A DNA stretch of 43,185 nt. Source: an uncultured SAR116 cluster alpha proteobacterium. GTDB taxonomy: Bacteria > Pseudomonadota > Alphaproteobacteria > Puniceispirillales > Marisalimonadaceae. The stretch lies in contig CABZSR010000012.1 in NCBI GenBank assembly GCA_902528415.1, positions 1-43,185 of the forward strand, in the 5' to 3' direction. The notes below the pieces were generated by a model that saw only the letters and a list, made by a program, of their open reading frames with translations, did not search any database and was not told where the DNA came from. A program made the position numbers and the translations under genes. Below are positions 28,059-43,185 of this stretch, piece after piece (within the stretch, counting starts at the first letter, position 1; each line of letters begins with the position of its first letter).

Positions 28059-28064
28059 TTCCCC

Positions 28065-29204: not shown

Positions 29205-29268
29205 GAATAATTAATTTTTGATTTTTCTTGATACTATGAATTAGAATGTTATATTCCATCTAAATTAA

Positions 29269-29343
29269 GCGGGCGTAGCTCAGTGGTAGAGCATCTCGTT
29301 GCCAACGAGAATGTCGAGAGTTCGAATCTCTTCGCCCGCTCCA
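29269..29343 (+). tRNA. tRNA-Gly (anticodon GCC), integration target
   Basis: The cloverleaf is complete: acceptor GCGGGCG pairs with CGCCCGC, the anticodon stem TCTCGTT/AACGAGA carries anticodon GCC, the T arm has GAGAGTTCGAATCTC, and the 3' CCA is encoded at 29341-29343. The 69 bases from 29275 onward recur exactly at 41777-41845. The gene stays functional because the element enters at its 3' side. A small hairpin TCGCC-TTC-GGCGA follows at 29345-29357, without a clear T-run. Confidence 0.97.
29275..29343 (+). repeat. attL: left direct repeat of the integrated element
   Basis: These 69 bases (from GTAGCTCAGTGG to CGCTCCA) are identical to 41777-41845. Sequences outside the repeat differ at both ends, as expected for attachment-site duplication by a tyrosine integrase acting on a tRNA gene. 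The crossover point inside the 69 bases cannot be told from this copy pair; related systems usually use the anticodon or T loop. Confidence 0.93.
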
Positions 29344-29410
29344 TTCGCCTTCGGCGAGATGCCAAGTTTTCCTTAAATATTCAACCTTTTAGAAGTGTTA
29401 ACTTTTGATG

Positions 29411-29432
29411 GGTAGACAAAATGGTAGACAAG
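29411..29432 (+). repeat. Left pair of GGTAGACAA repeats (possible integrase arm sites)
   Basis: GGTAGACAAA (29411-29420) and GGTAGACAAG (29423-29432) are direct repeats spaced 12 bases start to start and overlap the start codon of the integrase. The same word occurs once near the right end at 41693-41702. Position, direction and occurrence at both ends suggest arm-type integrase sites, possibly also autoregulatory. This is inference. Confidence 0.5.
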
Positions 29433-30578
29433 GTTAAGGGGAAATATCTCTTTCAAAAAAGAGGTGTGTATTATTTCTCAAAACAGATTCCCAAAGATGT
29501 ACGCCAACATTATTCGCGAAATCGTATTGTGCAAAGCTTGAAAACTAAATCTGTAAAAGATGCATTTTATCAAAGCCAAAATCTGTTACACAAATTAAAT
29601 CAACACTGGTTTTACTTGCGAGTAAAAGATGAAAATATACTCCTATTTCCTTATCAATTTACCCAGCAAATAACACAAGAAAGAGCGCAAAATCCAAAGC
29701 TCTCAAATGCCCTTCAAACGTATTTTAAATTAAAAGGAAAAGGTAAAGGTGAGATCTTTTTTAGAGCCACCAGAAGGGCTGTAAGGGACGTTATTGCCCT
29801 ATTAAAGGACAGATATTTAAATGATTATTCTACAACTGATGCGGCTCATTTTAGAGATCATTTACTAGATAGGGGTCTTGTCTCTTCAACCGTTAAAAGA
29901 GTATTTGCAATTATACGAGCCATCATAAATTTATCGATACAGGAATACGGATTAAGTTGCAAAAATGCTTTTGCTAGAACCTACATTCCAGATCTTGAAG
30001 ACTCTATAAAACGTCATCCAATACCAATAGACATTATCAGAGACATTCAAAAAGAATGCATAAAGATCAATGATCCTAATAGATGGTTAATTGCACTTAT
30101 ATCAGATACTGGCATGAGATTATCTGAAGCTCTTGGTTTGAAGATTAATGATTTGAAATTAGATAAAGAAATACCTTATTTAAACATCACACCAAATTCA
30201 GCAAGAAGACTTAAAACAAAATCTAGTGAAAGACAGATACCTCTTGTTGGATCATCACTATGGGCTGCTAGACAAATACTTGTGAATGTAAAAGGTGAGT
30301 TTGCTTTTCCACATTATACAATTAAAAGCTATTGCTATACAAATTCAGCAAGTGCTGCATTAAATAAATGGCTTAAAACTAAAATTTCAAAAAACTTCGT
30401 AATGCACAGTTTTAGACATAGTATGAGAGATAGATTACGATCTATTAACTGTCCAACTGAAATGATTGATCAGATTGGTGGATGGTCAAATACAAACGTT
30501 GGATCTAAGTATGGTAAAGGTTATAATTTAATTGAATTAAAGAAAAAACTAAAACTTATTTCTCAAAATTTTCAATGA
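29421..30578 (+). CDS. int: Tyrosine site-specific integrase
   Basis: The 385-residue recombinase has an N-terminal phage-integrase SAM-like/DUF6538-type part (GKYLFQKRGVYYFSKQIPKDVR), a core-binding domain (about 100-190) and the catalytic domain. Catalytic residues visible are R233 (DTGMRLSEA), K267 (TKSSERQIPL), H329 and R332 (HSFRH), W355 (GGW, the His/Trp position) and the nucleophile Y368 (YGKGY). It lies directly downstream of tRNA-Gly and presumably catalysed insertion and excision at the 69-bp repeat. ATG 29421 fits the family start. Its 3' end overlaps the convergent membrane-protein gene by 7 bases. Confidence 0.96.
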   Translation: MVDKVKGKYLFQKRGVYYFSKQIPKDVRQHYSRNRIVQSLKTKSVKDAFYQSQNLLHKLNQHWFYLRVKDENILLFPYQFTQQITQERAQNPKLSNALQTYFKLKGKGKGEIFFRATRRAVRDVIALLKDRYLNDYSTTDAAHFRDHLLDRGLVSSTVKRVFAIIRAIINLSIQEYGLSCKNAFARTYIPDLEDSIKRHPIPIDIIRDIQKECIKINDPNRWLIALISDTGMRLSEALGLKINDLKLDKEIPYLNITPNSARRLKTKSSERQIPLVGSSLWAARQILVNVKGEFAFPHYTIKSYCYTNSASAALNKWLKTKISKNFVMHSFRHSMRDRLRSINCPTEMIDQIGGWSNTNVGSKYGKGYNLIELKKKLKLISQNFQ

Positions 30579-31306: not shown

Positions 31307-31329
31307 GGGTTAAGACTAAATTATTGTTT

Positions 31330-31929
31330 TCACAATTCAACTTCGTCGAAATTTTCATAAGGGATTACTTCTTCAACGGGCTGAGCATAAATCTTCAAAT
31401 ATTTTTTAACAAATACGTCAAGATCAGGTAATTTTAATAAAATTTCATCTCTTTTTAGTCCAGCTGTAAAAATAAAACTTTTAACAAAGCTATTAAGATT
31501 TTTATTTTCCTTTAAAATAGGTTCAGTCTCAAACCCAAGTGAGTTAAAACCAAATTTATTAAAGAAATCATTTAAAACAATACCAATTGCAATTGTGGAG
31601 GAGATAAAATGTTTTCCTTCAAATGTAAGTCGAATGTCATCAGATGGTTCTTCGATCATTGTTTGAAAATCATTCAAATGATTTAATCGTAATTGAACCT
31701 GAGCTAAGTCTCTGATTTCTTTAATAGGGTGATCATTTGAAAAATATCCAATTTTAAAAAACAGATCATCATTATATAACTTATCATTTTGAAAAAAATT
31801 ATCGGGGTAGTCTATTTCTTCAAAAAATTCATTAAATGTGTCTTTTAGAGTAAACGGTAGATCTTTAATTTCAATATTTTTTTTGATATTCTGATAACCT
31901 GTTAAGATTTTTAAAAAAGCCATAGACAT
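31330..31929 (-). CDS. Hypothetical protein, possibly the 3' part of a frameshifted gene
   Basis: This frame of 199 residues begins MSMAFLKILTGYQNIKKN and ends NFDEVEL; I recognise no domain. Its ATG lies 59 bases inside the end of the upstream gene, no ribosome site precedes it, and its frame has a stop two codons earlier. The shared stretch contains a run of eight A on the coding strand (31877-31884), where a one-base slip would join the two frames into one protein of about 420 residues. Either a coupled second gene or the 3' part of one gene. Confidence 0.6.
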   Translation of the reverse strand: MSMAFLKILTGYQNIKKNIEIKDLPFTLKDTFNEFFEEIDYPDNFFQNDKLYNDDLFFKIGYFSNDHPIKEIRDLAQVQLRLNHLNDFQTMIEEPSDDIRLTFEGKHFISSTIAIGIVLNDFFNKFGFNSLGFETEPILKENKNLNSFVKSFIFTAGLKRDEILLKLPDLDVFVKKYLKIYAQPVEEVIPYENFDEVEL

Positions 31930-32599
31930 AATTTAATGGTTTAAAAAATATCGGATCTTGATGTGGTTTTAGGCTCCAATAATTATCCTTAAGTTCAAAA
32001 TTACCACATACTATTGCAAACAAATAATTTTTAATTTTATTAGCAAAAGTTCCCCTGCCATGTAATTCAAAATATTTATTCTTCTTATTTGGATGGTCTA
32101 TTTTATATATTCTTCTATAAGTATTTCTTCTTGAAATAATATGATCTATTAAATTTTCTGTATGAAAAGTTTCAAATATAAAACTCCTAATCTGTTTTGT
32201 AACATTAACAAGCTCTTGATCAGAAATAACATCATTAATGATTAGATCACGTGCAAAAAAAGGATACATTCTTGGGGTGAAAATAAAATCATTAAGAGTA
32301 TCATTAAATAATTGTTCATTATAAAATTTGGATTCTTTAGATAAGGCCTTTAGAAAAATTCCTAATGGATGCATATCTTTAGCATCATTATAAATCTTTT
32401 TTATTTTATCTTCTGGATAGAATTGATGTTCATAAGATAAACATTCTTGATCGGTTTTTAAGGAATCATATTCCTCTAAATAATTTACATAGTTATGAAC
32501 AATGGAGTCGTAGGCAGTTTGACTTCCTAATTGAGCCATTGATAAAATTTTTTTAAATCTATTTCTATTTCTTAAATCTTTTAAATATTTATCAATCAA
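31871..32599 (-). CDS. Hypothetical protein, possibly the 5' part of a frameshifted gene
   Basis: A 242-residue protein without a recognised domain. It is basic at the start (MIDKYLKDLRNRNRFKKIL) and in the region IISRRNTYRRIYKIDHPNKKNKYFELHGRG, and ends LSEYQKKY just after a run of eight A. The neighbouring frame takes over exactly there. The start at 32599 lies about 180 bases from the divergent polymerase-like gene. See the finding on the poly-A run. Confidence 0.6.
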   Translation of the reverse strand: MIDKYLKDLRNRNRFKKILSMAQLGSQTAYDSIVHNYVNYLEEYDSLKTDQECLSYEHQFYPEDKIKKIYNDAKDMHPLGIFLKALSKESKFYNEQLFNDTLNDFIFTPRMYPFFARDLIINDVISDQELVNVTKQIRSFIFETFHTENLIDHIISRRNTYRRIYKIDHPNKKNKYFELHGRGTFANKIKNYLFAIVCGNFELKDNYWSLKPHQDPIFFKPLNYVYGFFKNLNRLSEYQKKY

Positions 32600-32778
32600 A
32601 ACCTAAATCTCTACTGTATTTAATTAAGATATAATAAATGTTAGCTTAAACTTGTTAGAAAGAGAAAAAATATTTAAGTATATTTAATTTTTAACTGTTC
32701 TTAGTATAGACTCGCCGGGTTCTTCTATTAATCAATATAACAATCCTTATTGTTAAAAATTACTCTTTATTGTAGATA

Positions 32779-34143
32779 GTGCGTATGAACTCATTCGAAG
32801 AATTATGCCTAAAAGTATCACATAACATTGATGCAAAAGAACAAAGGATAAGATCACGAACTGAACAAGAACAAGTGAGGTTTAATTACGCTGTAACCTA
32901 TCTTTTAACCGATCTATGGAAAAAACATTTTACACATAGAGATAATCATTCCTCTATACAAAAGAATAAAAACTACTACTCCGCGCTTCAAATATATCAT
33001 GATCCAAACCTTACTTATCGAATGATCATACAAGCCTTTGATGGTCTTCAGAAACTCAATCTAATTCTAGTTACAAAAGAAGGACATTATGATCGTATTA
33101 AAATGGAAGGAAGCTTAACACGCTTTAAAGCAACAGATGATTTATCAGAGCTGTTTGATGAATTAGATAGTCATCCTGCAGTTACTTTAAACCCTAATAT
33201 AAATGCAAACACTATCTTGCTAAGAAACATTGTTGACGGAAGAAGGACATTAGTAACCTACCAAGAGGATAAAGACACAGAACTTTGGAGAGACAACCTT
33301 AAAAAAATAAACACATGCTTTTCACAACATATGATTGATCTAAGAATTAAAGATGAAGAATATCAATCTTTACAAGAAAGATTATTAATGGACAATGATA
33401 AAGAACCAATTGATCTTACGCAAAAAGTCTTAGTTCGTATTTTTATTAATAATTCATTTGCAGATGGTGGTAGATTCTATAGAGGATGGTGGCAAAACGT
33501 TCCAAGTGAATATAGACCATACATAACTATTAATTCAAAACTAACACAAGAACATGATTACTCCCAGCTAAACCCAAATATGATTTACTCACTTTATAAT
33601 CACGAATTGGGAAGTGAGGATGCCTATACTAGAGTTCTAGGTCCAGAACATCGTGAGACTGTTAAAGAAGCATTTAATGCAATGTTTCAAGCTAATACAG
33701 AATTGAACAGTAAACCATCTAAACTAAACCTTGATGAAGTAGGGATGTCTTGGAGAGAATTAAGAGAAGCAATATTAAATGCTCATAAACCTATAAGAAA
33801 TCTATTCTTCACTGGGTTAGGAAATAGATTGCAATTTGAGGATAGTATTATTGCAGAAAGCATAATGTTGCAATTTGCAAAAATGGATTATCCTGCACTA
33901 CCCATTCACGATAGCTTCATAATGCATCATGCTTTTGGTAATTCTGGCGAACTTGAAGAAGCCATGAGGCGTGCTTTTTATGAGAGGTTTAATAGAGATA
34001 TTGGTATATCAAGAGAGTTAGTTACAACACACAGTATATCTGAGATAAATAAAAACGAGGACTTATCTGATGTATTCAAAGCAGACGGACCATATTCTTT
34101 ATACAATAAGAGAAACGACTTATGGTTTAGCAAAAATAGATGA
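32779..34143 (+). CDS. Family-A DNA polymerase palm-domain-like protein
   Basis: This 454-residue protein carries, in the correct order, elements resembling the three polymerase motifs of family A: motif A HDYSQLNPNMIYSLY (D260-Y261-S262), motif B R292-x3-K296-x2-F299-N300 and motif C LPIHDSFIMH (H377-D378). GGRFYRGWWQNVPSEYRPYI (231-250) precedes motif A. No 3'-5' exonuclease domain is visible; the N-terminal 130 residues are helical and charged, with a possible winged-helix part near 62-110. It may replicate or prime the element's DNA. Start is GTG 32779 or ATG 32785. The divergent spacer 32600-32778 should hold promoters. Assignment is by motif reading only. Confidence 0.6.
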   Translation: MRMNSFEELCLKVSHNIDAKEQRIRSRTEQEQVRFNYAVTYLLTDLWKKHFTHRDNHSSIQKNKNYYSALQIYHDPNLTYRMIIQAFDGLQKLNLILVTKEGHYDRIKMEGSLTRFKATDDLSELFDELDSHPAVTLNPNINANTILLRNIVDGRRTLVTYQEDKDTELWRDNLKKINTCFSQHMIDLRIKDEEYQSLQERLLMDNDKEPIDLTQKVLVRIFINNSFADGGRFYRGWWQNVPSEYRPYITINSKLTQEHDYSQLNPNMIYSLYNHELGSEDAYTRVLGPEHRETVKEAFNAMFQANTELNSKPSKLNLDEVGMSWRELREAILNAHKPIRNLFFTGLGNRLQFEDSIIAESIMLQFAKMDYPALPIHDSFIMHHAFGNSGELEEAMRRAFYERFNRDIGISRELVTTHSISEINKNEDLSDVFKADGPYSLYNKRNDLWFSKNR

Positions 34144-34249
34144 ACTTTAGTTGACTGTACCCAAAGCCCAATTTCATTAATTGTACTAGAAACATATACT
34201 TAAAAAATATTTAGTTAGTTCAAGATAAAACTTATTGTAAGCAACTTAT

Positions 34250-34657
34250 CTAAACATTCACTGAATAATCCAATCCATTAAAAGCATATGCATCTAATCC
34301 AAGTTCAGCAATTTCTTGAAGTTTTTTTTCGGGTTGAGGTTGTATATTAAGCCATTCTGGTACTTTAGAGTAGTATTTTGAACAATCATATTTTGAATAA
34401 TCACGGTATTCATAAACATTTAAATAAAAATCGTGAAAATGAATTGTATCATCTATCAATTCTGGAGGTCTAAAACCATAATCAATAAGTCGCTCAACTA
34501 TAATATACATGTACCTTACATCCATTGTGGTAAATCGAGTTAATCTACCATCATCGTCGTCGGACATTTTATCATTAAGCCATCCCACCCAACCATTTGG
34601 ATATTTTGCTCTAACAATATGTTTAGTAGTGAACAAACTTTCAAATAAACTTCTCAT
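34250..34657 (-). CDS. Hypothetical acidic protein
   Basis: About 135 residues starting MRSLFESLFTTKHIVRAKYPNGWVGWLND. ATG 34657 is preferred because AAGGAT lies seven bases upstream; the frame is open 11 codons further. It is rich in Asp, Tyr and Trp (MSDDDDGRLTRFTTMDVRYM; YEYRDYSKYDCSKYYSKVPEWL) and has no recognised domain. A 25-base piece of its 3' region (codons for EWLNIQPQ) recurs near the right end of the element at 41305-41329. It is divergent from the membrane-protein gene that follows. Confidence 0.65.
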   Translation of the reverse strand: MRSLFESLFTTKHIVRAKYPNGWVGWLNDKMSDDDDGRLTRFTTMDVRYMYIIVERLIDYGFRPPELIDDTIHFHDFYLNVYEYRDYSKYDCSKYYSKVPEWLNIQPQPEKKLQEIAELGLDAYAFNGLDYSVNV

Positions 34658-34709
34658 GTTAAAATCCTTAGACTTTTTCAAACAACACATTCATGATAGT
34701 GTGTATATT

Positions 34710-35210
34710 ATGACTGATCAAATATTGATTATGAATAAATTGAAAAGGTGGTTTTGGTACTTTGGAGTTTTACCCTTATTAATATCTTATTTTATGTGCC
34801 TAAACTTTGTAGCTGAGTACATTCAAATAGGTTTAATCTCTAATCCTTCTATTACTATACTTTACATGGGTGAGCTTTTGTTTTTCGTAACTCTTGGTTT
34901 GGTAATGCTTATGGTTTTGTGGTGTAACGTAAATGCTTTTCGAGTTATTAAAATATCATCAGAAATTACATCATCAAAATTTAGATTTAAAAAATATACT
35001 TTGAATACTGCTGTTTTCTTATGTCCTATTGTCGCGATTTTAGGATTTATACCTTTATTAAAGTTAGTTTTAGATAAAGGTTTTTATTTACCTTTATTTC
35101 CTATTATTGAACCGATCGCTCAAAATTTAACGCCATATTTATTTCCTGTTTACTTATTTTTAGTAAATACACTTAGATATTTTTTTGGCAGTCAGTCTTA
35201 TGTTTACTAA
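34710..35210 (+). CDS. Hypothetical membrane protein (four helices)
   Basis: A 166-residue protein with four hydrophobic segments (about 13-33, 48-72, 100-120 and 130-158) joined by short charged loops (NAFRVIKISSEITSSKFRFKKY). The frame extends further upstream over the divergent gene, but that part is its shadow; ATG 34710 (MTDQILIM) or ATG 34731 is likely. I do not recognise a family. Confidence 0.6.
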   Translation: MTDQILIMNKLKRWFWYFGVLPLLISYFMCLNFVAEYIQIGLISNPSITILYMGELLFFVTLGLVMLMVLWCNVNAFRVIKISSEITSSKFRFKKYTLNTAVFLCPIVAILGFIPLLKLVLDKGFYLPLFPIIEPIAQNLTPYLFPVYLFLVNTLRYFFGSQSYVY

Positions 35211-35289
35211 ATATTATTTTAAGTAAGTTGTCACAAACTTACCTCATTTCATACATAATCAAGACTTAATTAAATTCATAATAATCATT

Positions 35290-35967
35290 ATGAACCTAAA
35301 AGTATTTTACGTTTCATTTATAAACCTCCTAGTTGCATTAGCAGTTACTGCTGCTAATGCAAAAACTAGAAACCACCTTACAGATGAATGCTATGAACAT
35401 GCTTCAGCCTTCTTTGGAAATAAAAATATCAAGTTTGAAGACTTTCAAATTATAAAAGAAGATGAACATATTTATGTACCATCAACAATTTTAAAAAGGG
35501 AAGGCGTAGACAAAGTTAATATAAAAGCAGTAAAAATTGAAAATAAAGAAATCCAAAATTTTTATGGTCTTCAGTTTAATTGGAAAAATCAATCAATTAT
35601 TGACTGCAGAAGCTGGTATAATACTCCTCTTATAATTTTAGTAGAAACTTATGATTATTATACTCCCTTCTTGATGGAAGATTTAAATGCAATAAAAGTT
35701 AGTACTCATGATTTAGTTAATTGTGGAAGTCCATGCCATTATGCACAAGTTAATTCTGTATATATAATTGATGATATTTCTTATGAGCCATTTTCTAGAA
35801 CAGAAATTTCTACACCTATATATGAGTATCCATCTAAAATGTTTATAGATTATCTAACTCTTGATGAAGTTTATCAATTTATGAATACTGGAGACGGTTT
35901 TGAGAATTTCATTTGGAGAAATAAAGCTTATAAAACAACAAAATTGAGAAAGATATTTCATAAATAA
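35290..35967 (+). CDS. Hypothetical secreted protein
   Basis: A 225-residue protein with a good Sec signal peptide (MNLKVFYVSFINLLVALAVTAANA, cleavage expected after ANA near residue 24). The mature part has cysteines in ECYEH, DCRSW and NCGSPCH, possibly disulfide-linked in the periplasm, and many tyrosines. No family recognised. It stands alone, 79 bases after the membrane-protein gene and convergent with the zinc-finger gene. Confidence 0.65.
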   Translation: MNLKVFYVSFINLLVALAVTAANAKTRNHLTDECYEHASAFFGNKNIKFEDFQIIKEDEHIYVPSTILKREGVDKVNIKAVKIENKEIQNFYGLQFNWKNQSIIDCRSWYNTPLIILVETYDYYTPFLMEDLNAIKVSTHDLVNCGSPCHYAQVNSVYIIDDISYEPFSRTEISTPIYEYPSKMFIDYLTLDEVYQFMNTGDGFENFIWRNKAYKTTKLRKIFHK

Positions 35968-36036
35968 AAATTCTTTTTACCAACTCTTAATTATATCGAA
36001 ATATTTAATCTAGCATAAATAGTTATAGTTTATATT

Positions 36037-37515
36037 TTACCATTTATGATTTGGATCCCAATCAATATATGTCATGGAAGCTTCTGGTTCTCCATCTCTT
36101 ACAATTGCCTCTCTTATTTCATCAAGGTTTTTGAACAATTTAAAATCTATGCCTAAATGTTCTGCGATAGTTTTATTTGTCGTCCACTTTATGATATTTT
36201 CTAATGTATTTTCTTTTATGTTTGAGAGTGTTTTACTTATTTCCTTATTAGGTAACATTTTTTCTATATCTCTATTGTAGCTATATAATTTTTTTTCGTC
36301 ACCAGTTTGTAATATCTTGTACCATTCTAAAATCAGATTATTAATTGACATTTTACCATTAGGATCTTCGTATCCATATATTAATCTGATATCTTTTCTT
36401 CTTCTGTAAGCTTTATTTCTACAACTACTGCTGCAGTAGACTTTTCCTTTTTTGCCCTGTTCAAGTTTCTCTACCCACTTTTGGCACTCTAAGCATCTTG
36501 TATAATCTTTATCATTTATAATAGCATCCATGAACTGGTAAAATATTTTTTGTAACATTGAATTATAAGACAAATTCATTTCACTTTTCTGATTTGTTAA
36601 AAGCCCTGATCTATATAAACCAGAAGTAAATTCAATATTTGGAGATAATCCTTCAGGTGAAAATATATTATTAATAAAATTTTGAATTAAGTTATTAGCA
36701 AATGTTAAATAAGGATTTGCTGCAGGAATTGAAGATTTAACTAATAAACCTATTCCTAAATTAATATTACTCATATTAAATTCTATCACAGGGGATATAT
36801 TAAATTTTAATTCTTCCTTAAAATCGTTTTCTAAAAACCTTAAATAAGAATCATGTAAAAAATTTATTTCTAAATATTGATTGTTTTCTTCGTCGCTTAA
36901 TAAAATTTTATTATTTTCTTTTTTAAATAAAAGATGAAAATAAGAGTTCTCTGTATCAAAATCAGATGCTTTCAGGTATCTCCATAATCTTATCAAAGTT
37001 CTAATGCGAACTTGGGCCAAAACCCAAAGAGAGATAGGTTCTGAATATAATTTTAAATCTTCATTAATTGTTTCACTATTTTTTTTATGAAAGGGATCAA
37101 TTATATTATAATAATTAACTTGTTGATGATGTAGACTTTGTACATTTGATAGAAAACCAAAATTCTCTAAAAACCAATTTAAATAATCTGACCTAGATAT
37201 AATTAAATCTGCAAATTCTAAAAATAATGTTTGATTTTCTGTATTATCAAATGTTTGTGTTTCTATTTCTTTCGAGCCAATGAACGTGTCAGAAAATTGA
37301 TAACAATTTCTCATATCTAACGGAAAAGAAGGTAAAGATTTAAAATTATTTGATTTTGATTTTTTGATCTCAAAATCAATTGAGGTTTTTATTTCGTGAG
37401 TATCTTGGTCAATATCAGTTACTGAAGATGCTATGACTTGTTGAGATTTTTTAAAAGTAAAATAGTTAGGATCAAGACCCTTACTAGTTCCAAAAACTCC
37501 TCTAAATACAGCCAC
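36037..37515 (-). CDS. Hypothetical protein with CGNR-like zinc finger
   Basis: A 492-residue protein whose only recognisable part is a zinc-ribbon at residues 341-372: C341-x2-C344 ... C361-x3-C365 followed by RNKAYRRRK. This is the C-terminal finger type of ABATE/CGNR proteins (CxxC ... YCSxxCRxxxxRRR), which are often DNA-binding. The 340 residues before it and 120 after it are unknown to me. Ending DWDPNHKW. It is divergent from the leader-controlled transcript that starts near 37631 and could be its regulator (inference). Confidence 0.7.
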   Translation of the reverse strand: MAVFRGVFGTSKGLDPNYFTFKKSQQVIASSVTDIDQDTHEIKTSIDFEIKKSKSNNFKSLPSFPLDMRNCYQFSDTFIGSKEIETQTFDNTENQTLFLEFADLIISRSDYLNWFLENFGFLSNVQSLHHQQVNYYNIIDPFHKKNSETINEDLKLYSEPISLWVLAQVRIRTLIRLWRYLKASDFDTENSYFHLLFKKENNKILLSDEENNQYLEINFLHDSYLRFLENDFKEELKFNISPVIEFNMSNINLGIGLLVKSSIPAANPYLTFANNLIQNFINNIFSPEGLSPNIEFTSGLYRSGLLTNQKSEMNLSYNSMLQKIFYQFMDAIINDKDYTRCLECQKWVEKLEQGKKGKVYCSSSCRNKAYRRRKDIRLIYGYEDPNGKMSINNLILEWYKILQTGDEKKLYSYNRDIEKMLPNKEISKTLSNIKENTLENIIKWTTNKTIAEHLGIDFKLFKNLDEIREAIVRDGEPEASMTYIDWDPNHKW

Positions 37516-37595
37516 TTTTTATCCTATTAAATATTTTATTATGTACAAATTACAAAATGTGAGACGATTATTTTAAAATACATACCATTTATTAT

Positions 37596-37624
37596 TTGAC
37601 AGTAATTATAATAATAATATAGTA
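37596..37624 (+). promoter_or_regulatory. Sigma-70-type promoter for the 37785 unit
   Basis: TTGACA (37596-37601) and TATAGT (37618-37623) are separated by 16 bases, close to the sigma-70 consensus. The start would be near 37631, giving a 5' leader of about 150 bases that includes the inverted repeat at 37641-37661 and leader element 1. Confidence 0.6.
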
Positions 37625-37640
37625 TCATCAAATATAGATA

Positions 37641-37661
37641 TGTCTACTAAAAGTGTAGACA
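37641..37661. repeat. Inverted repeat TGTCTAC-N7-GTAGACA, possible operator
   Basis: Seven-base arms TGTCTAC (37641-37647) and GTAGACA (37655-37661) flank seven bases, just after the predicted start of transcription. An A-run follows, so it is not a terminator for plus-strand genes. The arm word GTAGACA is the core of the repeats at both ends of the element, suggesting one protein could bind all these sites. Confidence 0.45.
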
Positions 37662-37668
37662 AAAAAAA

Positions 37669-37743
37669 ACGACTTAGTCCAATTTGAACTAAGTCGTAAT
37701 TTCAACTGTTATACAGTCTAATGCAATCCCAGTATAGCAGTTG
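37669..37743 (+). promoter_or_regulatory. Structured leader element 1
   Basis: Two hairpins follow a run of nine A. Hairpin 1 has perfect arms ACGACTTAGT (37669-37678) and ACTAAGTCGT (37688-37697). Hairpin 2 has 12-base arms CAACTGTTATAC (37703-37714) and GTATAGCAGTTG (37732-37743) with one G-T wobble and a 17-base loop starting AGTCTAATGC. A strong AAAGGAG ribosome site and the ATG of the 60-residue gene lie about 30-40 bases downstream. A paralogous element with other stem sequences is at 38391-38475. Confidence 0.65.
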
Positions 37744-37784
37744 TTAAATAAATTGAAATATTAATTTAACAAAGGAGTTAAATA

Positions 37785-37967
37785 ATGAAAAATAACCTAA
37801 ATTTTAATAAAGATTTAAGTAATCTTTTCAACTGCTATGAAATGCAACTTTCTAGATCAAAATTTGGATTTAGAAATCATCATAAAGAATTTCTATTGCA
37901 TATTAAAAATGAGAGTATGAGATTACCTAGCTTTTGTGGTGATAGAGTTGTCAAAACCAATCTCTAA
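37785..37967 (+). CDS. Hypothetical 60-residue protein
   Basis: A short basic protein (MKNNLNFNKDLSNLFNCYEM, then RSKFGFRNHHKEFLLHIKNES) of unknown family. AAAGGAG at the correct distance before the ATG and the preceding promoter and leader support translation. It overlaps the next gene by 32 bases, which suggests translational coupling. An antitoxin-like, regulatory or leader-peptide role is conceivable; nothing in the sequence decides it. Confidence 0.6.
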   Translation: MKNNLNFNKDLSNLFNCYEMQLSRSKFGFRNHHKEFLLHIKNESMRLPSFCGDRVVKTNL

Positions 37968-38376
37968 TTTCTTAAACAAAGTGGATAGAAAATTGGTTTG
38001 TGATACATTAGTTTATGTTGCTCAAACTGCTGCTGCGCCTAATTGTACATTTTCAAGAATTACATCTGATGTTTCAGAAGATGGCAATATAGGAACATTT
38101 ACTGTCGAACTTTTTTTAAATGGTGCAAGAGCATCTGAAGAAGATGCCTTAAATGACTTCATTAAAAAAAATAATTACCCTTACAAGTCATCTTTATACA
38201 TTGATCAAAATGGTCAAGTTTATCGATTGTGGGGATACTCAGCTAATGAAAAAGATGCTCCATTTATAATGATGAATCTAAAAAATTATGATCAATTTTT
38301 AGTAACTGATGAATTTGTAAAAAAATTTTTTACTAGAGAGAGTTCAATAGATCCAACTGCAGATAGCAGCAGCTAA
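37936..38376 (+). CDS. Hypothetical 146-residue protein
   Basis: An unrecognised soluble protein. The start is GTG 37936 (or GTG 37939), inside the end of the upstream gene and without its own ribosome site, so it probably depends on coupling. The middle looks like an alpha/beta fold (NIGTFTVELFLNG; SSLYIDQNGQVYRLWGYS) and the end is a Ser/Asp/Thr tail. It is followed after 14 bases by leader element 2. Confidence 0.6.
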   Translation: MVIELSKPISNFLNKVDRKLVCDTLVYVAQTAAAPNCTFSRITSDVSEDGNIGTFTVELFLNGARASEEDALNDFIKKNNYPYKSSLYIDQNGQVYRLWGYSANEKDAPFIMMNLKNYDQFLVTDEFVKKFFTRESSIDPTADSSS

Positions 38377-38390
38377 TTTCTATTAAAAAA

Positions 38391-38475
38391 GGCATGTGCT
38401 GTAACACATGCCTCAACTCTATGACCAAGAAAACTTAGTCCTAGCGTCATACAACTAGTATAGCTTTTCTTGGTC
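38391..38475 (+). promoter_or_regulatory. Structured leader element 2 (attenuator-like)
   Basis: Same layout as element 1: an A-run, hairpin 1 with perfect arms GGCATGTG (38391-38398) and CACATGCC (38405-38412), then hairpin 2 with perfect 11-base arms GACCAAGAAAA (38423-38433) and TTTTCTTGGTC (38465-38475). Its 31-base loop contains TTAGTCCTA and ends AGTATAGC, words shared with element 1. Five T follow, so hairpin 2 could end transcription like an attenuator. AGCAAAGGAG and an ATG come next. The stem sequences differ from those of element 1 but still pair. Confidence 0.65.
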
Positions 38476-38497
38476 TTTTTAGCAAAGGAGAAAATAA

Positions 38498-38545
38498 ATG
38501 CTAAAGAAAAAAAGGCAAAGAGGAGACTATAATGGAACTAAATAG
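38498..38545 (+). CDS. Possible 15-residue leader peptide before the exonuclease gene
   Basis: The AAAGGAG after leader 2 is placed for ATG 38498, which encodes MLKKKRQRGDYNGTK and stops at 38543-38545, 14 bases inside the exonuclease gene in another frame. A second site, AGAGGAG, precedes the exonuclease ATG at 38532. The very basic peptide could couple or attenuate translation; it may also be chance. Confidence 0.4.
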   Translation: MLKKKRQRGDYNGTK

Positions 38546-40028
38546 TAAGTCTTCAAAAATCCAATCTTTTTATGATGATCTTTTCGGTTTTGATACTGAA
38601 ACAACTGGATTGGACAAATTTCCAGATACAAGACCAACTGGTGTTGCATTCCTAAAATATAATAGTGATTTTAAAAACTATTTAAATTTGGATATATCCA
38701 TAAGACTACCTTTTGGTCATTTTCCATCACCGGGGTCAATGATTGTTCAAGATAAATTTTACAGTCAAATTAACAGTAAAGATAACCTTGAATTCTATGA
38801 TGCTATGGCAAAAGTAAAAAACTTTATTAGTTCTAAACTTAGAGGAAAAATCATCTGTGGCCATAACATAAACGGATTTGATACAAAGCAGTTAAATGTT
38901 TGGTTCAACAAAGCTCTTTATGATCCTTATCCATTTCAAAAAAAGTTTGGAAATTATCTAATTGACACTATTCCTGTGGCTAGGTTCGCAAAAGCCATCA
39001 GTGGTGATCATTTTAAATTTCAAAATTTTAGATTGGAAACACTTATGAAATTTTTTTTGGGAGAATCCTACACCCAGCTTCATGGTGCACCAGAAGACGT
39101 TAAAGATGTTTTTACACTCATTGAATTTACAGACAAAAAACTTAGACTGCTTAAAGGTAAAAACTTAGTTGAAATATTACAATGGTATAGCAGTGAAATT
39201 AATAGAAAAAACGTTTTTAGTAATTCTTTAATTTTAAAGCCAAATAATAAAGGAGTGTTTGAATCAGTAATTCCTTTGTCAGATTGTAAAAGTTGGAAAG
39301 GCTATAAAATTGTCATTCCATTTCATAAGGATAAAATTGACTGGAGTGGAAATGATGCTGAGGCAGTAGCTAACCAGATTAAGTCAATATCAAGTCCGAG
39401 CTCGATATCTTCTAAAAAGGAATTTGTCTATCCTGTAGATATGCAAGATAAAATGTCTGATATTGGTGAAAATTTTTTAAATAAATTGCCAATAACAGTA
39501 CAATACTTGAGGTCTGTTGTTAAGCTACTAAGAGAAGACCGAGAGTTTATCAATCAATGTCAAATTTCTGTTGATGAAAGCAGGAGGAAGTCCAAAAAAC
39601 CTGTCTCAGATTATGAGGGACATTATCGTGACGGTGATGGTTTTTTTGATAAAGATTCGGATAGAATGAAGTTTTTTCATCAAGCGATACCAGAAAAAAA
39701 GAGGGAAATTATTCAATCTTTTGAAAATAAAGGTATCCGTAAAAACGCTAAGTTATTTCTATTCAATAAGCACCCGGAGGTACTCTCACAAGCAGAATGG
39801 GATTGCATGTTTGAAGAGATAAGGGACGAATTTCTTGACGATAAAAACACATCTCGCGTTACTTATGCTTCTTGTTACGAAGAATTTGATCAAATAAAAC
39901 AAGATGTAAAAAATGGCAAAAGGGTTTTGTCTGATAGACAAAGAGATATTCTAGACGACTACAAAGTTCGTTTGGAAGCCTTCAAAGCTAATCCAAAAAG
40001 ATTTTGGGAGCAAAGACATGGCTACTAA
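38532..40028 (+). CDS. Exonuclease I (SbcB)-like DEDDh 3'-5' exonuclease
   Basis: A 498-residue protein whose first 200 residues carry the DEDDh exonuclease motifs in the Exonuclease I arrangement: FGFDTETTG (D21, E23) with TRP-G-AFL like the DRPAQFA of ExoI, CGHNINGFDTKQLN (D117), YDPYPF with GNYLIDTIPVAR, and LHGAPEDVKDV (H184, D189). Total length is close to the 475 residues of SbcB, and the C-terminal region (NAKLFLFNKHPEVLSQAEW) faintly resembles the ExoI C-terminal LLFRYRARN block. It should degrade single-stranded DNA from 3' ends. The start overlaps a short upstream peptide; the next gene overlaps its end by 11 bases. Confidence 0.75.
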   Translation: MELNSKSSKIQSFYDDLFGFDTETTGLDKFPDTRPTGVAFLKYNSDFKNYLNLDISIRLPFGHFPSPGSMIVQDKFYSQINSKDNLEFYDAMAKVKNFISSKLRGKIICGHNINGFDTKQLNVWFNKALYDPYPFQKKFGNYLIDTIPVARFAKAISGDHFKFQNFRLETLMKFFLGESYTQLHGAPEDVKDVFTLIEFTDKKLRLLKGKNLVEILQWYSSEINRKNVFSNSLILKPNNKGVFESVIPLSDCKSWKGYKIVIPFHKDKIDWSGNDAEAVANQIKSISSPSSISSKKEFVYPVDMQDKMSDIGENFLNKLPITVQYLRSVVKLLREDREFINQCQISVDESRRKSKKPVSDYEGHYRDGDGFFDKDSDRMKFFHQAIPEKKREIIQSFENKGIRKNAKLFLFNKHPEVLSQAEWDCMFEEIRDEFLDDKNTSRVTYASCYEEFDQIKQDVKNGKRVLSDRQRDILDDYKVRLEAFKANPKRFWEQRHGY

Positions 40029-40770
40029 ATCAATTTGGGGCACAGAAGTTAGAGATAGCTCAGCTTATTTGCGAGGTATCTTGGCATTATACAAAGTAGG
40101 TACTGTTGTAGAAGATGATCATTTTAAGAAGGACATCCTAGAGGTATTTCAAAATCATCCCTACAAAACTGCTTTGCCGCCGTGTGAGGTTGTGGTGACA
40201 CACAACCCACAATATGGCAAACAGTCAAAATGTTTTGGAATAATAGATAGTACGAAAGAAATCATACTTTTTTCAATCCAGAATGTAGCCGTCAAACCGT
40301 TCAATTTATCGGCTGAAATAAATAAGATCCTAAGAGATTTTGTGTCGCATGATGTCAGTCAGAAAAAGGAGAGTTTGATAAAACAATATGGATTGTTTTG
40401 TATGAAAGGTAAGGCTCCTTGTGATAGATCAAACCTTACTCTAAACCACGACCATCCATATGAGTTTAACAAAATTGTTGAGACTTTCTTGAGAAGCAAC
40501 TGCATTGAGGTTGATAAAAATCTTCTTGAAATTTCAGTAAACCAGCAGCTGGTGTTTAAAGACTTAAATATATTGGACAAGTTCAGGGCATACCATAAAA
40601 CCTTCTTAGATGATGGTTATGCAAGCCTAATGTCTAAGAGCAATAATAGTAAACTTGGAACTTCATATAGATTTAAATCAAAATTAATTGAGAAACCAAA
40701 CTTTAATAGTGCTCATGCATGGCAAAAATCACAACTATCTTTATTTGATGGAGTTGCTGATGGAATTTGA
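40018..40770 (+). CDS. DUF3223 (DCL-like) domain protein
   Basis: A 250-residue protein. Residues 15-110 (ILALYKVGTVVEDDHFKKDILEVFQNHP ... KCFGIIDSTKEIILFSIQNVA) resemble the DUF3223/DCL domain, which typically reads as a short motif with vG, D, HP and a cF-i-R-dG-FS core. The rest (FCMKGKAPCDRS; HPYEFNKIVETFL) is unknown. The gene overlaps the exonuclease gene by 11 bases and the next gene by 11 bases, so the three form a tight operon and probably work together. The domain call is moderate; no catalytic residues can be assigned. Confidence 0.55.
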   Translation: MATKSIWGTEVRDSSAYLRGILALYKVGTVVEDDHFKKDILEVFQNHPYKTALPPCEVVVTHNPQYGKQSKCFGIIDSTKEIILFSIQNVAVKPFNLSAEINKILRDFVSHDVSQKKESLIKQYGLFCMKGKAPCDRSNLTLNHDHPYEFNKIVETFLRSNCIEVDKNLLEISVNQQLVFKDLNILDKFRAYHKTFLDDGYASLMSKSNNSKLGTSYRFKSKLIEKPNFNSAHAWQKSQLSLFDGVADGI

Positions 40771-41221
40771 TTTCAAAAAATGGGTTAAGGGCGAAACTCC
40801 TGAAGAAAATACCAAACTTGCTAGAATTGACAGTGAGTTTGGTAAGCTAATTGATCGACTTGATGATGAGGATATTGATAGAGAGTCAATATTCATCTAT
40901 GGGATGTTTAACTTGCTGGAGTACCTTCATTTAAGAAATAATGATCTCTTGCACAGGTTAACTTTACTTTTAGAGTCATACATAATTTTTGTTCGTATGA
41001 GAACTAACTACAAAGATTATCGAGGGTTACCTACAGACATTAAAATAACTGAGTTAGATAAAGAATATGATATTAACATCACTTCAGTTGTAGATTCTAT
41101 GAGTGATGGATCTGCAGAATGTTTTAGTCTTGTTAGGGCAATGAGTGATTATGTACAACTTGTAAACACAGAGAAGGTTAAAAATAAAAAAAAGCATTTC
41201 GGGAATACAACTAAGCACTGA
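40760..41221 (+). CDS. Hypothetical protein, third gene of the exonuclease operon
   Basis: A 153-residue mostly helical, acidic protein (MEFDFKKWVKGETPEENTKL; RLDDEDIDRESIFIYGMF) with a conspicuously basic end (KVKNKKKHFGNTTKH). ATG 40760, with GGAG six bases upstream and lying inside the preceding gene, is preferred; ATG 40748 is an in-frame alternative. No family recognised. It closes the operon and is followed by a strong terminator. Confidence 0.7.
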   Translation: MEFDFKKWVKGETPEENTKLARIDSEFGKLIDRLDDEDIDRESIFIYGMFNLLEYLHLRNNDLLHRLTLLLESYIIFVRMRTNYKDYRGLPTDIKITELDKEYDINITSVVDSMSDGSAECFSLVRAMSDYVQLVNTEKVKNKKKHFGNTTKH

Positions 41222-41248
41222 TCATAAATTTGATAGTCTACGAATTAA

Positions 41249-41277
41249 CCCCATGTATAGCTACGTGGGGTTTTTTA
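41249..41277 (+). terminator. Rho-independent terminator of the exonuclease operon
   Basis: The stem CCCCATGTA/TACGTGGGG (one G-T pair, loop TAGC) is followed by TTTTTT. It lies 28 bases after the stop of the last gene of the operon and is the clearest terminator in the element. Confidence 0.9.
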
Positions 41278-41304
41278 TTTCTATACAAATAATGTGCATC
41301 TGCA

Positions 41305-41329
41305 GTTGAGGTTGTATGTTAAGCCAATC
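41305..41329 (-). pseudogene. Fragment repeating part of the 34250-34657 gene
   Basis: These 25 bases match 34333-34357 at 23 positions. On the minus strand they read SDWLNIQPQ next to the EWLNIQPQ of the complete gene, in the same frame, and run into a stop soon after. No more of the gene is clear here, so it appears to be a small relic of a duplicated or replaced gene copy. Confidence 0.5.
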
Positions 41330-41350
41330 CGACTTGAAAATTTATTTGGC

Positions 41351-41446
41351 TTATACTTTTCCTTTGCCTGACAGATACTTTGGTACTGCTTTTTGTTCAA
41401 AATATGTATCGACAAACTGTTCTATAATTTTTGATAGCCAATCCAT
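41351..41446 (-). CDS. Possible 31-residue peptide
   Basis: ATG 41446 is preceded by AGGAG nine bases upstream and encodes MDWLSKIIEQFVDTYFEQKA..., stopping at 41351. An amphipathic helix is likely. The good ribosome site is the only support; it could also be the start of a truncated gene, since the fragment at 41305-41329 follows on the same strand. The rest of the 41278-41776 gap shows no other gene. Confidence 0.35.
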   Translation of the reverse strand: MDWLSKIIEQFVDTYFEQKAVPKYLSGKGKV

Positions 41447-41621
41447 TATCTTTTTCTCCTTAAAAGTTTACGTTTTACGATTTTATTTAATTACAGATTT
41501 ATTACAGTTTTATTACAAAGATAATAAAGTTTAATACATTCTGTTGAAGCTGAATTAGAAGTAGATTAGTTACTTGTACAACTAACGGTGCAACATAAAA
41601 TGAGATCTAAATTACGTGCCT

Positions 41622-41660
41622 ATGCATACACCCCCCGGGTGGCCCTTGCAGGGTATTTCT
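41622..41660. other. GC-rich foldable patch in AT-rich DNA
   Basis: About 30 bases around CACCCCCCGGGTGG and GGCCCTTGCAGGG are almost pure G and C in a surrounding of about 30% GC. CCCGGG is self-complementary, CACCC pairs with GGGTG and CCC-TTGCA-GGG can form a second hairpin. It lies about 120 bases inside the right attachment site. It may be a protein-binding or structured DNA site of the element; function unknown. Confidence 0.4.
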
Positions 41661-41692
41661 TATCGTAAATTATAAAAAGCAGAATACAAAAA

Positions 41693-41702
41693 GGTAGACA
41701 AA
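41693..41702 (+). repeat. Right-end GGTAGACAAA site (possible integrase arm site)
   Basis: The ten bases equal the left repeat at 29411-29420 and lie 75 bases inside the right direct repeat in the same orientation. Matching sites near both ends of an integrase-borne element suggest arm-type binding sites. Confidence 0.45.
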
Positions 41703-41776
41703 AGATGAGCATCTTTACTCCATTTTCAATCTATTCTAAGGTTGAACTTATGGTTGTATTTTTGATAAAAATGGCA

Positions 41777-41845
41777 GTAGCTCAGTGGTAGAGCATCTCG
41801 TTGCCAACGAGAATGTCGAGAGTTCGAATCTCTTCGCCCGCTCCA
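41777..41845 (+). repeat. attR: 69-bp truncated tRNA-Gly copy
   Basis: The sequence is identical to bases 7-75 of tRNA-Gly(GCC) at 29269-29343, including CCA. The six bases of the 5' acceptor strand (GCGGGC) are replaced by ATGGCA, which cannot pair with the 3' acceptor strand, so this is not a working tRNA. It marks the right boundary of the integrated element. Confidence 0.93.
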
Positions 41846-41959
41846 ATTCCATAACACAAAAATCATAAATATAAATTTAACAATTTATAATTATTTTTAA
41901 GTCAGTTTTAATTTATGTTAAAATTTTATAAATTTTAATTTTATAGGTTTGAATTTATT

Positions 41960-42277
41960 ATGTTTACAAGAATTCATGTTTTGAAATTTCAAAACAAAGT
42001 TGCAAAAGACAGCTTAAAAAATACCTGTAGGCTAATAAATGATAAATTATTGAAAAGAGGACTATATAGTTCAACCTTTGTTGATGTTAATGACACAAAC
42101 CTTTATGTAATCAACACATGGAAAGATGAAAAAACCTCGGATAAAGCTCATTCACAATACACTGATTTTGTAAAACAAGTTAAAGAAATGGGAGTTAATG
42201 TAGTGATTGTAGGTGGAGATACAGAAGTTATATATTCTGATCCTTCCATATTGCAAAAATATACCAAAGTAGAATAA
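41960..42277 (+). CDS. Small protein, possible dimeric alpha-beta barrel (ABM-like)
   Basis: A 105-residue protein with an alternating beta-alpha pattern: MFTRIHVLKFQ, a helix NTCRLINDKLLKRG, LYSSTFVDVND, TNLYVINTWKDEKTSDKAHSQYTDFVKQVKEMG and VNVVIVGGDTEVIYSD. The central YVINTWKDE...A with a following helix is typical of antibiotic-monooxygenase-like or stress-responsive dimeric barrels. No catalytic residue can be assigned. It is the first gene beyond the element's right end. Confidence 0.6.
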   Translation: MFTRIHVLKFQNKVAKDSLKNTCRLINDKLLKRGLYSSTFVDVNDTNLYVINTWKDEKTSDKAHSQYTDFVKQVKEMGVNVVIVGGDTEVIYSDPSILQKYTKVE

Positions 42278-42282
42278 TTAAA

Positions 42283-42831
42283 TTATACTAAAAACTTGCT
42301 CTTTTTATAATCTAGCATCCATTTCTCAAAAACTAATATCGCTTCGTCCATATCAGCAGTTTTGTTTGGATGTTTTTTTGCTCTACCTAACATAGTGGAT
42401 ACAACATTTACTTGATATTTTTTGTCTCTGTCTTTTATTGCATCTATAGTATAAGTTGCTTTTTCTTTATTCTTAAATCCAAGCCCTTTTAAAGTTGTCT
42501 CAGGCTTATAGTCTGAATATAGAGATAGATTAAGAGGTTTTAACTTTCCCCCATAGTTAAACTTACTCATTGGCATAGAATCTATAAGATCAAAAATGTT
42601 ATGAGGTTCTAATGTTAAATATTCTTTTTTTAAAGCACCATCGTAACCAATTAGTTTGATGGAAAACTTAAGACCCTTTTTTCTAAAAGACATTAATTTG
42701 ACATGTCTTTTATGAAACTCTTTTATATGTTTTTGATAAAGTTCTTTTGATTTTTTATAGTTACTATCTCTATAACAAGTGGTACTTAACAAAAGTACCC
42801 TACATTTCCATTTGTATTTTGTTAAATCCAT
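42283..42831 (-). CDS. DUF4174-like protein with extra C-terminal domain
   Basis: A 182-residue protein. Residues 1-95 (YKWKCRVLLLSTT, KRHVKLMSF, IKLIGYDGALK, FDLIDSMPMSK) resemble the DUF4174 fold: beta-strand start, LIG-DG-K and IDxMPM signatures. Residues 120-182 (DAIKDRDKKYQVNVVSTMLGRAKKHPNKTADMDEAI) form a helical module with an HPNKT-x-M-x-A-I motif that I have seen as a separate small protein family but cannot name. Convergent with the preceding gene, five bases apart. Confidence 0.6.
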   Translation of the reverse strand: MDLTKYKWKCRVLLLSTTCYRDSNYKKSKELYQKHIKEFHKRHVKLMSFRKKGLKFSIKLIGYDGALKKEYLTLEPHNIFDLIDSMPMSKFNYGGKLKPLNLSLYSDYKPETTLKGLGFKNKEKATYTIDAIKDRDKKYQVNVVSTMLGRAKKHPNKTADMDEAILVFEKWMLDYKKSKFLV

Positions 42832-42845
42832 TGTTTAATGATTTA

Positions 42846-42998
42846 TTAACTATTTTCTGTATCAACAATATCATTTTCAGTTTTACTAACTTGATCTTTT
42901 TTCTTTTTCATCTTGCAAACTTCTTTTAAAGCCAAGCCTGCCATTACTCCTATACCCATTCCTATAATAGTTCCTTTAATTATTCCTATTGCAAACAT
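42846..42998 (-). CDS. Small glycine-rich membrane protein (50 residues)
   Basis: ATG 42998 follows a strong GGAG ribosome site and encodes MFAIGIIKGTIIGMGIGVMA, a single glycine-zipper-like membrane helix, then a basic stretch (KMKKKK) and an acidic end. It lies 9 bases after the stop of the 38-residue gene and forms a pair with it. No function known to me; single-helix proteins of this size are common in streamlined marine genomes. Confidence 0.6.
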   Translation of the reverse strand: MFAIGIIKGTIIGMGIGVMAGLALKEVCKMKKKKDQVSKTENDIVDTENS

Positions 42999-43007
42999 TT
43001 TAATCTC

Positions 43008-43124
43008 CTAATTTTCAATCCATGAAATAAATTGATAAAAACCAAAAAGAATACCAAAGAAAACATAAAGTCTGACTTGTGATCTTAATATTGGTATAAC
43101 TATGATTTTTTGTATTATTGACAT
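43008..43124 (-). CDS. Small membrane protein (38 residues)
   Basis: ATG 43124 encodes 38 residues with one hydrophobic segment (LYVFFGILFGFYQFI) after a basic stretch. Its stop lies just before the ribosome site of the next small gene, an arrangement of two coupled genes. No clear ribosome site is visible before its own ATG and the family is unknown, so confidence is limited. Confidence 0.45.
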   Translation of the reverse strand: MSIIQKIIVIPILRSQVRLYVFFGILFGFYQFISWIEN

Positions 43125-43185
43125 AATAATTATTTAATCTTTTTAAATTAATATTCAATATCACTATGTAATATTAATAAAATTT

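What the first reader, a model, noticed from the sequence alone, without database searches (positions are those of the whole stretch)
37669..38475. Two paralogous structured leaders with compensating stem changes
Both elements have the order A-run, perfect hairpin 1 (8-10 bp), short spacer, 11-12 bp hairpin 2, loop containing AGTC and followed by AGTATAGC, then AAAGGAG and ATG. The stem sequences are entirely different (CAACTGTTATAC against GACCAAGAAAA) yet still pair, so structure rather than sequence appears to be kept, as in a regulatory RNA. They sit before two separate operons of the same element about 700 bases apart. I know no described RNA family with this layout.
Basis: partly seen in the sequence, partly recalled or inferred. 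Interest (0 to 1): 0.75.

Follow-up and report, generated by a model that had tools for sequence, protein, structure and literature searches.

The report
Twin antisense RNAs on mobile operons
The two folded stretches noticed in this marine-bacterium mobile element look like two small genes for short RNAs made from the opposite DNA strand, each predicted to pair with, and probably silence, the start of the operon it overlaps.

Summary
The two structured leaders are there and fold beyond chance, but 'paralogous sense-strand regulatory RNA' is not the best reading. On the minus strand, hairpin 1 plus the A-run is an intrinsic terminator, the shared AGTATAGC is a -10 box, and the predicted start lies in hairpin 2's loop: each leader would encode a ~65-nt, two-hairpin countertranscript. 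The same operon pair occurs in 3 of 136 genomes of the order, giving six leaders. Five of six carry a strong antisense terminator; the best antisense promoter falls at the same place in all six (0 of 1000 shuffle sets as tight); all six antisense RNAs fold better than shuffles, and the antisense-over-sense excess is beyond composition. The window holds a 12.6-kb tRNA-Gly integrative element of a SAR116 bacterium; the second operon encodes an ExoI/SbcB-like exonuclease and a DUF3223/HamC-like protein. Closest mechanism: plasmid countertranscript attenuation (pSK41, pT181, pMV158). Against: no transcript data; promoters individually weak; one leader lacks the T-tract; antisense-induced closing of the ribosome site is only partly supported.

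The parts
37661..37724 (-). predicted antisense RNA 1 (about 64 nt): 5' tail, hairpin, terminator hairpin, U-tract
   Evidence: best antisense promoter start to end of T-run; z -6.5, 0 of 200 shuffles
   Evidence: -16.8 antisense against -13.3 kcal/mol sense
37731..37758 (-). predicted antisense promoter 1: TTTCAA-16-TATACT with TG-extended -10; contains the shared AGTATAGC
   Evidence: p 0.30 alone; position
37703..37743 (+). hairpin 2 of leader 1 in the sense mRNA; loop holds the start of antisense RNA 1
37596..37623 (+). sense promoter of operon 1, TTGACA-16-TATAGT (11 of 12 matches)
37641..37661 (.). inverted repeat TGTCTAC..GTAGACA just after the sense promoter: possible operator
   Evidence: function inferred
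37785..37967 (+). ORF A, 60 aa, unknown; short ORFs stand at the same place in L012 and L013
   Evidence: no Pfam, PADLOC or PHROGs match
37936..38376 (+). ORF B, 146 aa, unknown; 43% and 27% identical in the two relatives
   Evidence: model too poor to use (pLDDT 50)
38385..38450 (-). predicted antisense RNA 2 (about 66 nt), two hairpins and U-tract
   Evidence: z -6.4, 0 of 200 shuffles
38389..38414 (-). terminator hairpin of antisense RNA 2 followed on the minus strand by a T-tract
38457..38485 (-). predicted antisense promoter 2: TTGCTA-17-TATACT; contains the shared AGTATAGC
   Evidence: p 0.012
38423..38475 (+). hairpin 2 of leader 2, followed by T5; possibly also a sense terminator of operon 1
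   Evidence: terminator role inferred
38498..38545 (+). 15-codon ORF whose stop overlaps the exonuclease start
   Evidence: sequence
38532..40028 (+). ExoI/SbcB-like exonuclease, 498 aa
   Evidence: Pfam RNase_T; PADLOC RTasSbcB 1.1e-13; PDB exonuclease I 1.2e-12 with profile A3
40018..40770 (+). DUF3223 / HamC-like protein, 250 aa
   Evidence: PADLOC HamC2 2.3e-11; Pfam DUF3223 below cut-off here, above it in L012
40688..41221 (+). 177-aa protein, unknown, end of operon 2
   Evidence: no family
29275..29343 (+). left copy of a 69-bp exact direct repeat inside tRNA-Gly (attachment site)
41777..41845 (+). right copy of the 69-bp direct repeat (partial tRNA)
29421..30578 (+). tyrosine integrase of the element
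   Evidence: Pfam Phage_integrase 9.3e-16

Best explanation
Each of the two leaders carries, on its opposite strand, a gene for a cis-encoded antisense RNA (countertranscript) of about 65 nt. In the mRNA, hairpin 2 ties up the 3' arm. The antisense RNA pairs with loop and 5' arm, frees the 3' arm, and lets it pair downstream, in several leaders over the Shine-Dalgarno, so that translation of the operon falls; RNase III decay of the duplex may add to this. Two unlike antisense RNAs set two operons separately. Shown by computation: position, antisense terminators, strand-biased folding, recurrence in three genomes. Inferred: that the RNA is made, that it represses, and by which step.
For: Antisense terminators at both hairpins 1 (3 terminator-like sites found in 1.1 kb, shuffles mean 0.2; two of the three are these). 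In 486 kb scanned with one rule, 12 intergenic terminators point away from the start of an opposite-strand ORF within 200 nt; 5 are in these leaders, 81-117 nt from the start, -13.6 to -18.6 kcal/mol, and of the other 7 only one is below -11.5. Best-scoring antisense promoter ends its -10 at 16, 23, 20, 21, 19 and 22 nt from the loop start in the six leaders; 0 of 1000 shuffle sets are as tight, mean score reached by 3.3%. The 5' part of the predicted RNA folds beyond shuffles (p 0.073, 0.001, 0.011, 0.089, 0.015, 0.009; combined 1e-6). Whole predicted RNAs: z -4.6 to -6.8, 0 of 400 shuffles each; antisense-minus-sense energy summed over six is -44.7 kcal/mol against -19.8 (sd 6.2) in shuffles, 0 of 400. 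Freed 3' arms re-pair downstream more than expected (combined p 0.035; energy p 0.003). Cognate duplexes -102 to -124 kcal/mol, other leaders -12 to -35.
Against: No transcript data. Promoters are weak one by one (p 0.30, 0.012, 0.63, 0.13, 0.72, 0.08; combined 0.039) and their matrix was recalled from memory for E. coli. Leader L12_E2 has no T-tract after hairpin 1, and it failed the terminator scan. Part of the strand bias is composition: G-U pairs are 21 antisense against 1 sense, but shuffles already give a difference of 13.2 (sd 3.9) and reach 20 in 4.25%. Sense strands fold well too (z -2.4 to -6.2). Hairpin 2 shows no steady strand preference (antisense more stable in 4 of 6). Closing of the Shine-Dalgarno on antisense binding is strong in 1 of 6 leaders (0.95 to 0.07 unpaired), slight in three (0.68 to 0.52, 0.24 to 0.20, 0.38 to 0.20) and absent in both window leaders (0.77 to 0.77, 0.96 to 0.91). 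Only three elements, partly related, were found.
Confidence: 0.72

Rival explanations
1. A sense-strand regulatory leader (riboswitch-like or protein-binding RNA) of which E1 and E2 are two copies.
For: Sense leaders fold strongly (z -6.1, -4.5; -4.9, -7.2, -4.0, -4.1); hairpin 2 with a 17-31-nt loop recurs before both operons in the three elements.
Against: No conserved loop sequence across the six; E1/E2 shared word near chance; no Rfam match at gathering score, the nearest being freshwater-2 at 22.7 of 49.9 bits and preQ1-II at 19 of 47; hairpin 1 has its T-tract on the other strand.
Confidence: 0.1
2. Plain transcription punctuation: hairpin 1 only stops stray antisense transcription, and hairpin 2 with its T-run only ends operon 1. 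No regulatory RNA is made.
For: Hairpin 2 of W_E2 is followed by T5 and that of L12_E2 by TCTTTTT; hairpin 1 is a good minus-strand terminator; promoters are weak singly.
Against: E1 has no upstream sense gene to end (the neighbour 36037-37515 is on the minus strand); no ORF of 60 aa or more on the minus strand feeds these terminators except one of 73 aa inside an operon-2 gene; promoter position is fixed in six leaders; the 5' part of the RNA has its own hairpin.
Confidence: 0.15
3. Transcription attenuation: sense hairpin 2 is itself the terminator, and the antisense RNA, by taking its 5' arm, lets transcription through, so that it activates.
For: T-run after hairpin 2 in W_E2 and L12_E2, TTTT in both L13 leaders; the antisense footprint ends inside hairpin 2.
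Against: No T-run after hairpin 2 in W_E1 and L12_E1; loops are long for an intrinsic terminator; known countertranscripts of this layout repress (PMC5703833, passages and section 20).
Confidence: 0.15

Closest known systems
pSK41 RNAI (staphylococcal RepA_N plasmids; PMC5703833, passages and section 20 seen)
   Same: Countertranscript of the leader; two stem-loops and a 5' tail; proposed to induce a stem-loop that hides the ribosome-binding site.
   Different: 83 nt there, about 65 here; controls a rep gene there, accessory operons here; here the RNA lies closer to the start codon; no sequence kinship was tested between them.
pT181 RNAI and pIP501 RNAIII transcription attenuators (PMC5703833, passages)
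   Same: Antisense RNA changes which of two mRNA structures forms in a leader; pIP501 also has a repressor gene beside it.
   Different: There antisense binding forms a terminator; here the sense T-run follows the hairpin that antisense binding would open, and in only some leaders.
pMV158 RNAII (PMC4485353, passages)
   Same: Short (48 nt) countertranscript just upstream of the start signals, ending in an intrinsic terminator, blocks translation.
   Different: One hairpin and a single-stranded tail; here two hairpins; rep control there.
Phage and transposon antisense RNAs: lambda OOP, P22 sar, IS10 RNA-OUT, and hok/sok (all recalled, no call)
   Same: Short antisense RNAs of mobile elements over a leader or start.
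   Different: Different targets; ORF A is not an obvious small membrane toxin (judged by eye).

Membership tests
cis-encoded countertranscript antisense RNA over a leader | promoter on the strand opposite the leader | tested here: inconclusive
   fixed position in six leaders (0 of 1000 shuffle sets) but weak single scores
cis-encoded countertranscript antisense RNA over a leader | intrinsic terminator of the antisense RNA inside the leader | tested here: met
   5 of 6 leaders including both of the window; L12_E2 fails
cis-encoded countertranscript antisense RNA over a leader | a discrete short RNA is made in cells | not testable with these tools
   needs strand-specific RNA data
pSK41-type translational attenuator | antisense binding makes the mRNA hide its ribosome-binding site | tested here: inconclusive
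   strong in 1 of 6, slight in 3, absent in 2 leaders, among them both of the window; in segments cut at the ATG the site is paired in the best fold of 5 of 6
pT181/pIP501-type transcription attenuator | antisense binding makes a terminator form before the gene | tested here: not met
   the T-run follows hairpin 2, whose 5' arm the antisense RNA would take; no such terminator was seen downstream of it in the window
plasmid replication control | target is a replication initiator gene | tested here: not met
   targets are ORF A/B and an exonuclease operon
Rfam families (4227 models) | gathering score | tested here: not met
   only two tRNA matches in the window, none in L012 and L013
defence-associated reverse transcriptase system (RTasSbcB hit) | a reverse transcriptase gene beside the SbcB-like gene | tested here: not met
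   no reverse transcriptase family among the element ORFs scanned in Pfam

The most novel reading that the evidence does not exclude
Two independent antisense RNAs form a two-channel RNA switch over an undescribed anti-phage module (ORF A, ORF B, SbcB-like exonuclease, HamC-like DUF3223 protein, 177-aa protein) of a marine integrative element: each RNA keeps one half of the module silent and is lost or overrun on phage attack or element induction, so that both halves are produced together only then.
Probability: 0.2. Interest if true: 0.75.

Novelty: new variant of a known kind. Interest (0 to 1): 0.5.

Why it matters
Countertranscript control is best known from plasmid rep genes. Here it would guard two cargo operons of a chromosomal integrative element, with two RNAs predicted not to cross-react, in SAR116, an uncultured-rich marine lineage. 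It would give a concrete small-RNA gene to look for in marine strand-specific transcriptomes, a route to the control of a possible defence module, and perhaps a pair of orthogonal antisense/target modules. It also shows how a strong 'structured leader' seen on one strand can be a gene on the other.

Tried and rejected
Known riboswitch or Rfam family: 7 matches up to E 10 in 37000-39000, all below gathering; whole window gave two tRNA matches only; L012 and L013 none.

Covariance model: not built. The six leaders do not align (in which the L013 stretches that I gave were about 10 and 2 bases off the predicted ends), so covariation or a model search would have meant little.

More relatives: viral contigs with the exonuclease, ORF B, the 177-aa protein and alignments A3 and A2 gave no relative; genome contigs with the exonuclease none (the tool may leave out very near records); phages one weak record, E 6e-4. 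In 289 genomes of the class the exonuclease matched 6, own included, all others at E 4e-7 or weaker. In 136 of the order it matched 36, but outside the own genome only two matches are below 1e-20; I take the rest for chromosomal exonuclease I, untested.

Are antisense leaders general for this integrase family? 66 loci (718,860 bases, 795 ORF calls) gave 13 antisense-to-leader terminators at -10 kcal/mol or below within 220 nt; I looked at their table rows only and saw no second set like this one. Many ORF calls there are crude (longest-ORF rule), as.

Own choices that bear on counts: hairpin and loop borders for searches were set by me from the folds; the 3' ends of the predicted RNAs in L12_E1 and L12_E2 (71 and 61 nt) fall where I cut the segment, so the 61-71-nt range is soft at both ends; I had picked promoter candidates by eye before the unbiased scan; shuffles do not keep the shared leader layout, so their 0 of 1000 may be somewhat too kind. 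The first shuffle controls were mononucleotide, and one search used a crude pairwise shuffle; searches kept dinucleotides.

Structure models: ORF B pLDDT 50, DUF3223 protein 67; not searched further. Early guesses rejected by eye without a call: integron attC site, retron msr, IS ends.

Full report
What is there. The finding's two elements are real and fold far better than shuffles. Leader 1 lies between a minus-strand gene (36037-37515) and operon 1 (ORF A 37785-37967, ORF B 37936-38376); leader 2 lies between ORF B and operon 2 (exonuclease 38532-40028, DUF3223 protein 40018-40770, 177-aa protein 40688-41221). A 15-codon ORF at 38498-38545 overlaps the exonuclease start.

Where it is. A 69-bp exact direct repeat, 29275-29343 inside tRNA-Gly and 41777-41845, brackets 12.6 kb with a tyrosine integrase next to the tRNA: an integrative element. 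The integrase's nearest relatives in named genomes are from SAR116 records, the best 86% in AG-893-P05, whose contig has the length of G335:C2. The element also carries a 454-aa protein of PHROG 4756, found in 49 of 136 genomes of the order. The exonuclease matches PADLOC RTasSbcB (1.1e-13) and PDB exonuclease I through a three-row profile (1.2e-12); the 250-aa protein matches PADLOC HamC2 (2.3e-11). These are resemblances, not proof of defence; no reverse transcriptase family turned up among the element ORFs scanned.

Relatives. Profiles of ORF B and of the DUF3223 protein, and the 177-aa protein, each match 3 of 136 genomes of the order: own, G335, G336. In both relatives the order ORF A - ORF B - leader - exonuclease - DUF3223 - 177 aa is kept, with protein identities of 26-43% for exonuclease, ORF B and DUF3223. 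So there are six leaders to compare: W_E1, W_E2, L12_E1, L12_E2, L13_E1, L13_E2. All six sense strands fold beyond 200 shuffles, although the best fold of the whole L13_E1 sense leader uses a competing pairing in place of hairpin 2.

The strand. The terminator scan finds hairpin 1 of both window leaders on the minus strand, 13 and 11 pairs followed by T-tracts; the same scan over 23600-43185 puts these two at the head of 10 sites. My own scan with one rule over 486 kb (20 background stretches of 20 kb from G335 and G332, plus L045-L047 and the window; 492 ORF calls) finds 12 terminators reading away from the start of an opposite-strand ORF within 200 nt; 5 are hairpins 1 of the six leaders, 81-117 nt from the start; the sixth, L12_E2, has no T-tract.

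The start. Scanning loop-to-ATG on the antisense strand with a recalled sigma-70 matrix, the best promoter places the end of its -10 box 16-23 nt from the loop start in all six leaders; none of 1000 dinucleotide-shuffled sets is as tight (median range 33), and their mean score reaches the observed one in 3.3%. Single scores are mostly not significant. That explains why the box is shared while the stems are not, and why it may sit in a stem in one leader and in a loop in the other.

The RNA. From start to T-tract the predicted RNAs are about 65 nt (64, 66, 71, 61, 69, 65; two of the ends are set by my cuts) and all fold into a 5' hairpin and the terminator hairpin. The 5' part alone beats shuffles (combined p 1e-6). 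Antisense is more stable than sense in 6 of 6 for hairpin 1, for the 5' part and for the whole. Since the segments are G+T rich this is partly expected; against composition-preserving shuffles the summed excess still stands out (-44.7 against -19.8, sd 6.2; 0 of 400), while the G-U count is borderline (difference 20 against 13.2, sd 3.9; 4.25%).

How it probably works. The antisense RNA covers loop and 5' arm of sense hairpin 2, leaving the 3' arm. Folding what is left, cut at the ATG, the 3' arm re-pairs downstream more than with shuffled downstream sequence (combined p 0.035) and the energy is lower (p 0.003); in 5 of 6 best folds the Shine-Dalgarno is paired. With 20 more coding bases and the ensemble instead of the best fold, closing is strong only in L12_E2, slight in three, and absent in both window leaders. 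I therefore hold repression by a countertranscript as likely, and Shine-Dalgarno capture as one of several possible final steps, beside RNase III decay and, in leaders with a T-run behind hairpin 2, control of termination. A strong sense promoter (TTGACA-16-TATAGT, 37596-37623) followed by an inverted repeat (37641-37661) next to a divergent gene suggests that operon 1 also has a protein repressor (inference).

Compared with the known. pSK41 RNAI is the nearest in layout: countertranscript of a leader, two stem-loops with a 5' tail, hiding the ribosome-binding site (PMC5703833, section 20 and passages). pT181 and pIP501 attenuate transcription (same review, passages). pMV158 RNAII is a 48-nt countertranscript ending in an intrinsic terminator that blocks translation (PMC4485353, passages). 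Those control rep genes; here the targets are accessory operons and there are two RNAs, with cognate duplex energies of -102 to -124 kcal/mol and -12 to -35 for other leaders. Literature searches on SAR116 with antisense or small RNA, antisense RNA with satellites or integrative elements and with defence showed no title on such a system in the lists that I saw; apart from the two papers named, I saw listings only.

Verdict. It is a new variant of a known kind, countertranscript antisense control, with no transcript yet to prove it.

Noticed in passing
29275-41845: 12.6-kb integrative element between 69-bp direct repeats at tRNA-Gly; related integrases occur in other marine alphaproteobacteria.
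   Followed up: partly
32779-34143: 454-aa protein of PHROG 4756 (unknown function) with DYSQLNP and HDSF motifs that recall family A DNA polymerases (motif names recalled); present in 49 of 136 genomes of the order.
   Followed up: no
37596-37661: Near-consensus sense promoter followed by a 21-bp inverted repeat beside a divergent gene with a CxxC-type zinc-finger-like stretch (36037-37515; judged by eye): possible repressor and operator.
   Followed up: no
38498-38545: 15-codon ORF with its own AAAGGAG whose stop overlaps the exonuclease start; may couple translation.
   Followed up: no
41243-41276 and L046 14084-14117: Identical terminator sequence after the 177-aa gene in the window and in G335, while the operons upstream are only 26-36% identical in protein.
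   Followed up: no
L045 8023-8751: ADP-ribosylglycohydrolase-like gene (Pfam 1.3e-23) near the G336 copy of the operon, beside a PD-(D/E)XK-like nuclease (below cut-off).
   Followed up: no
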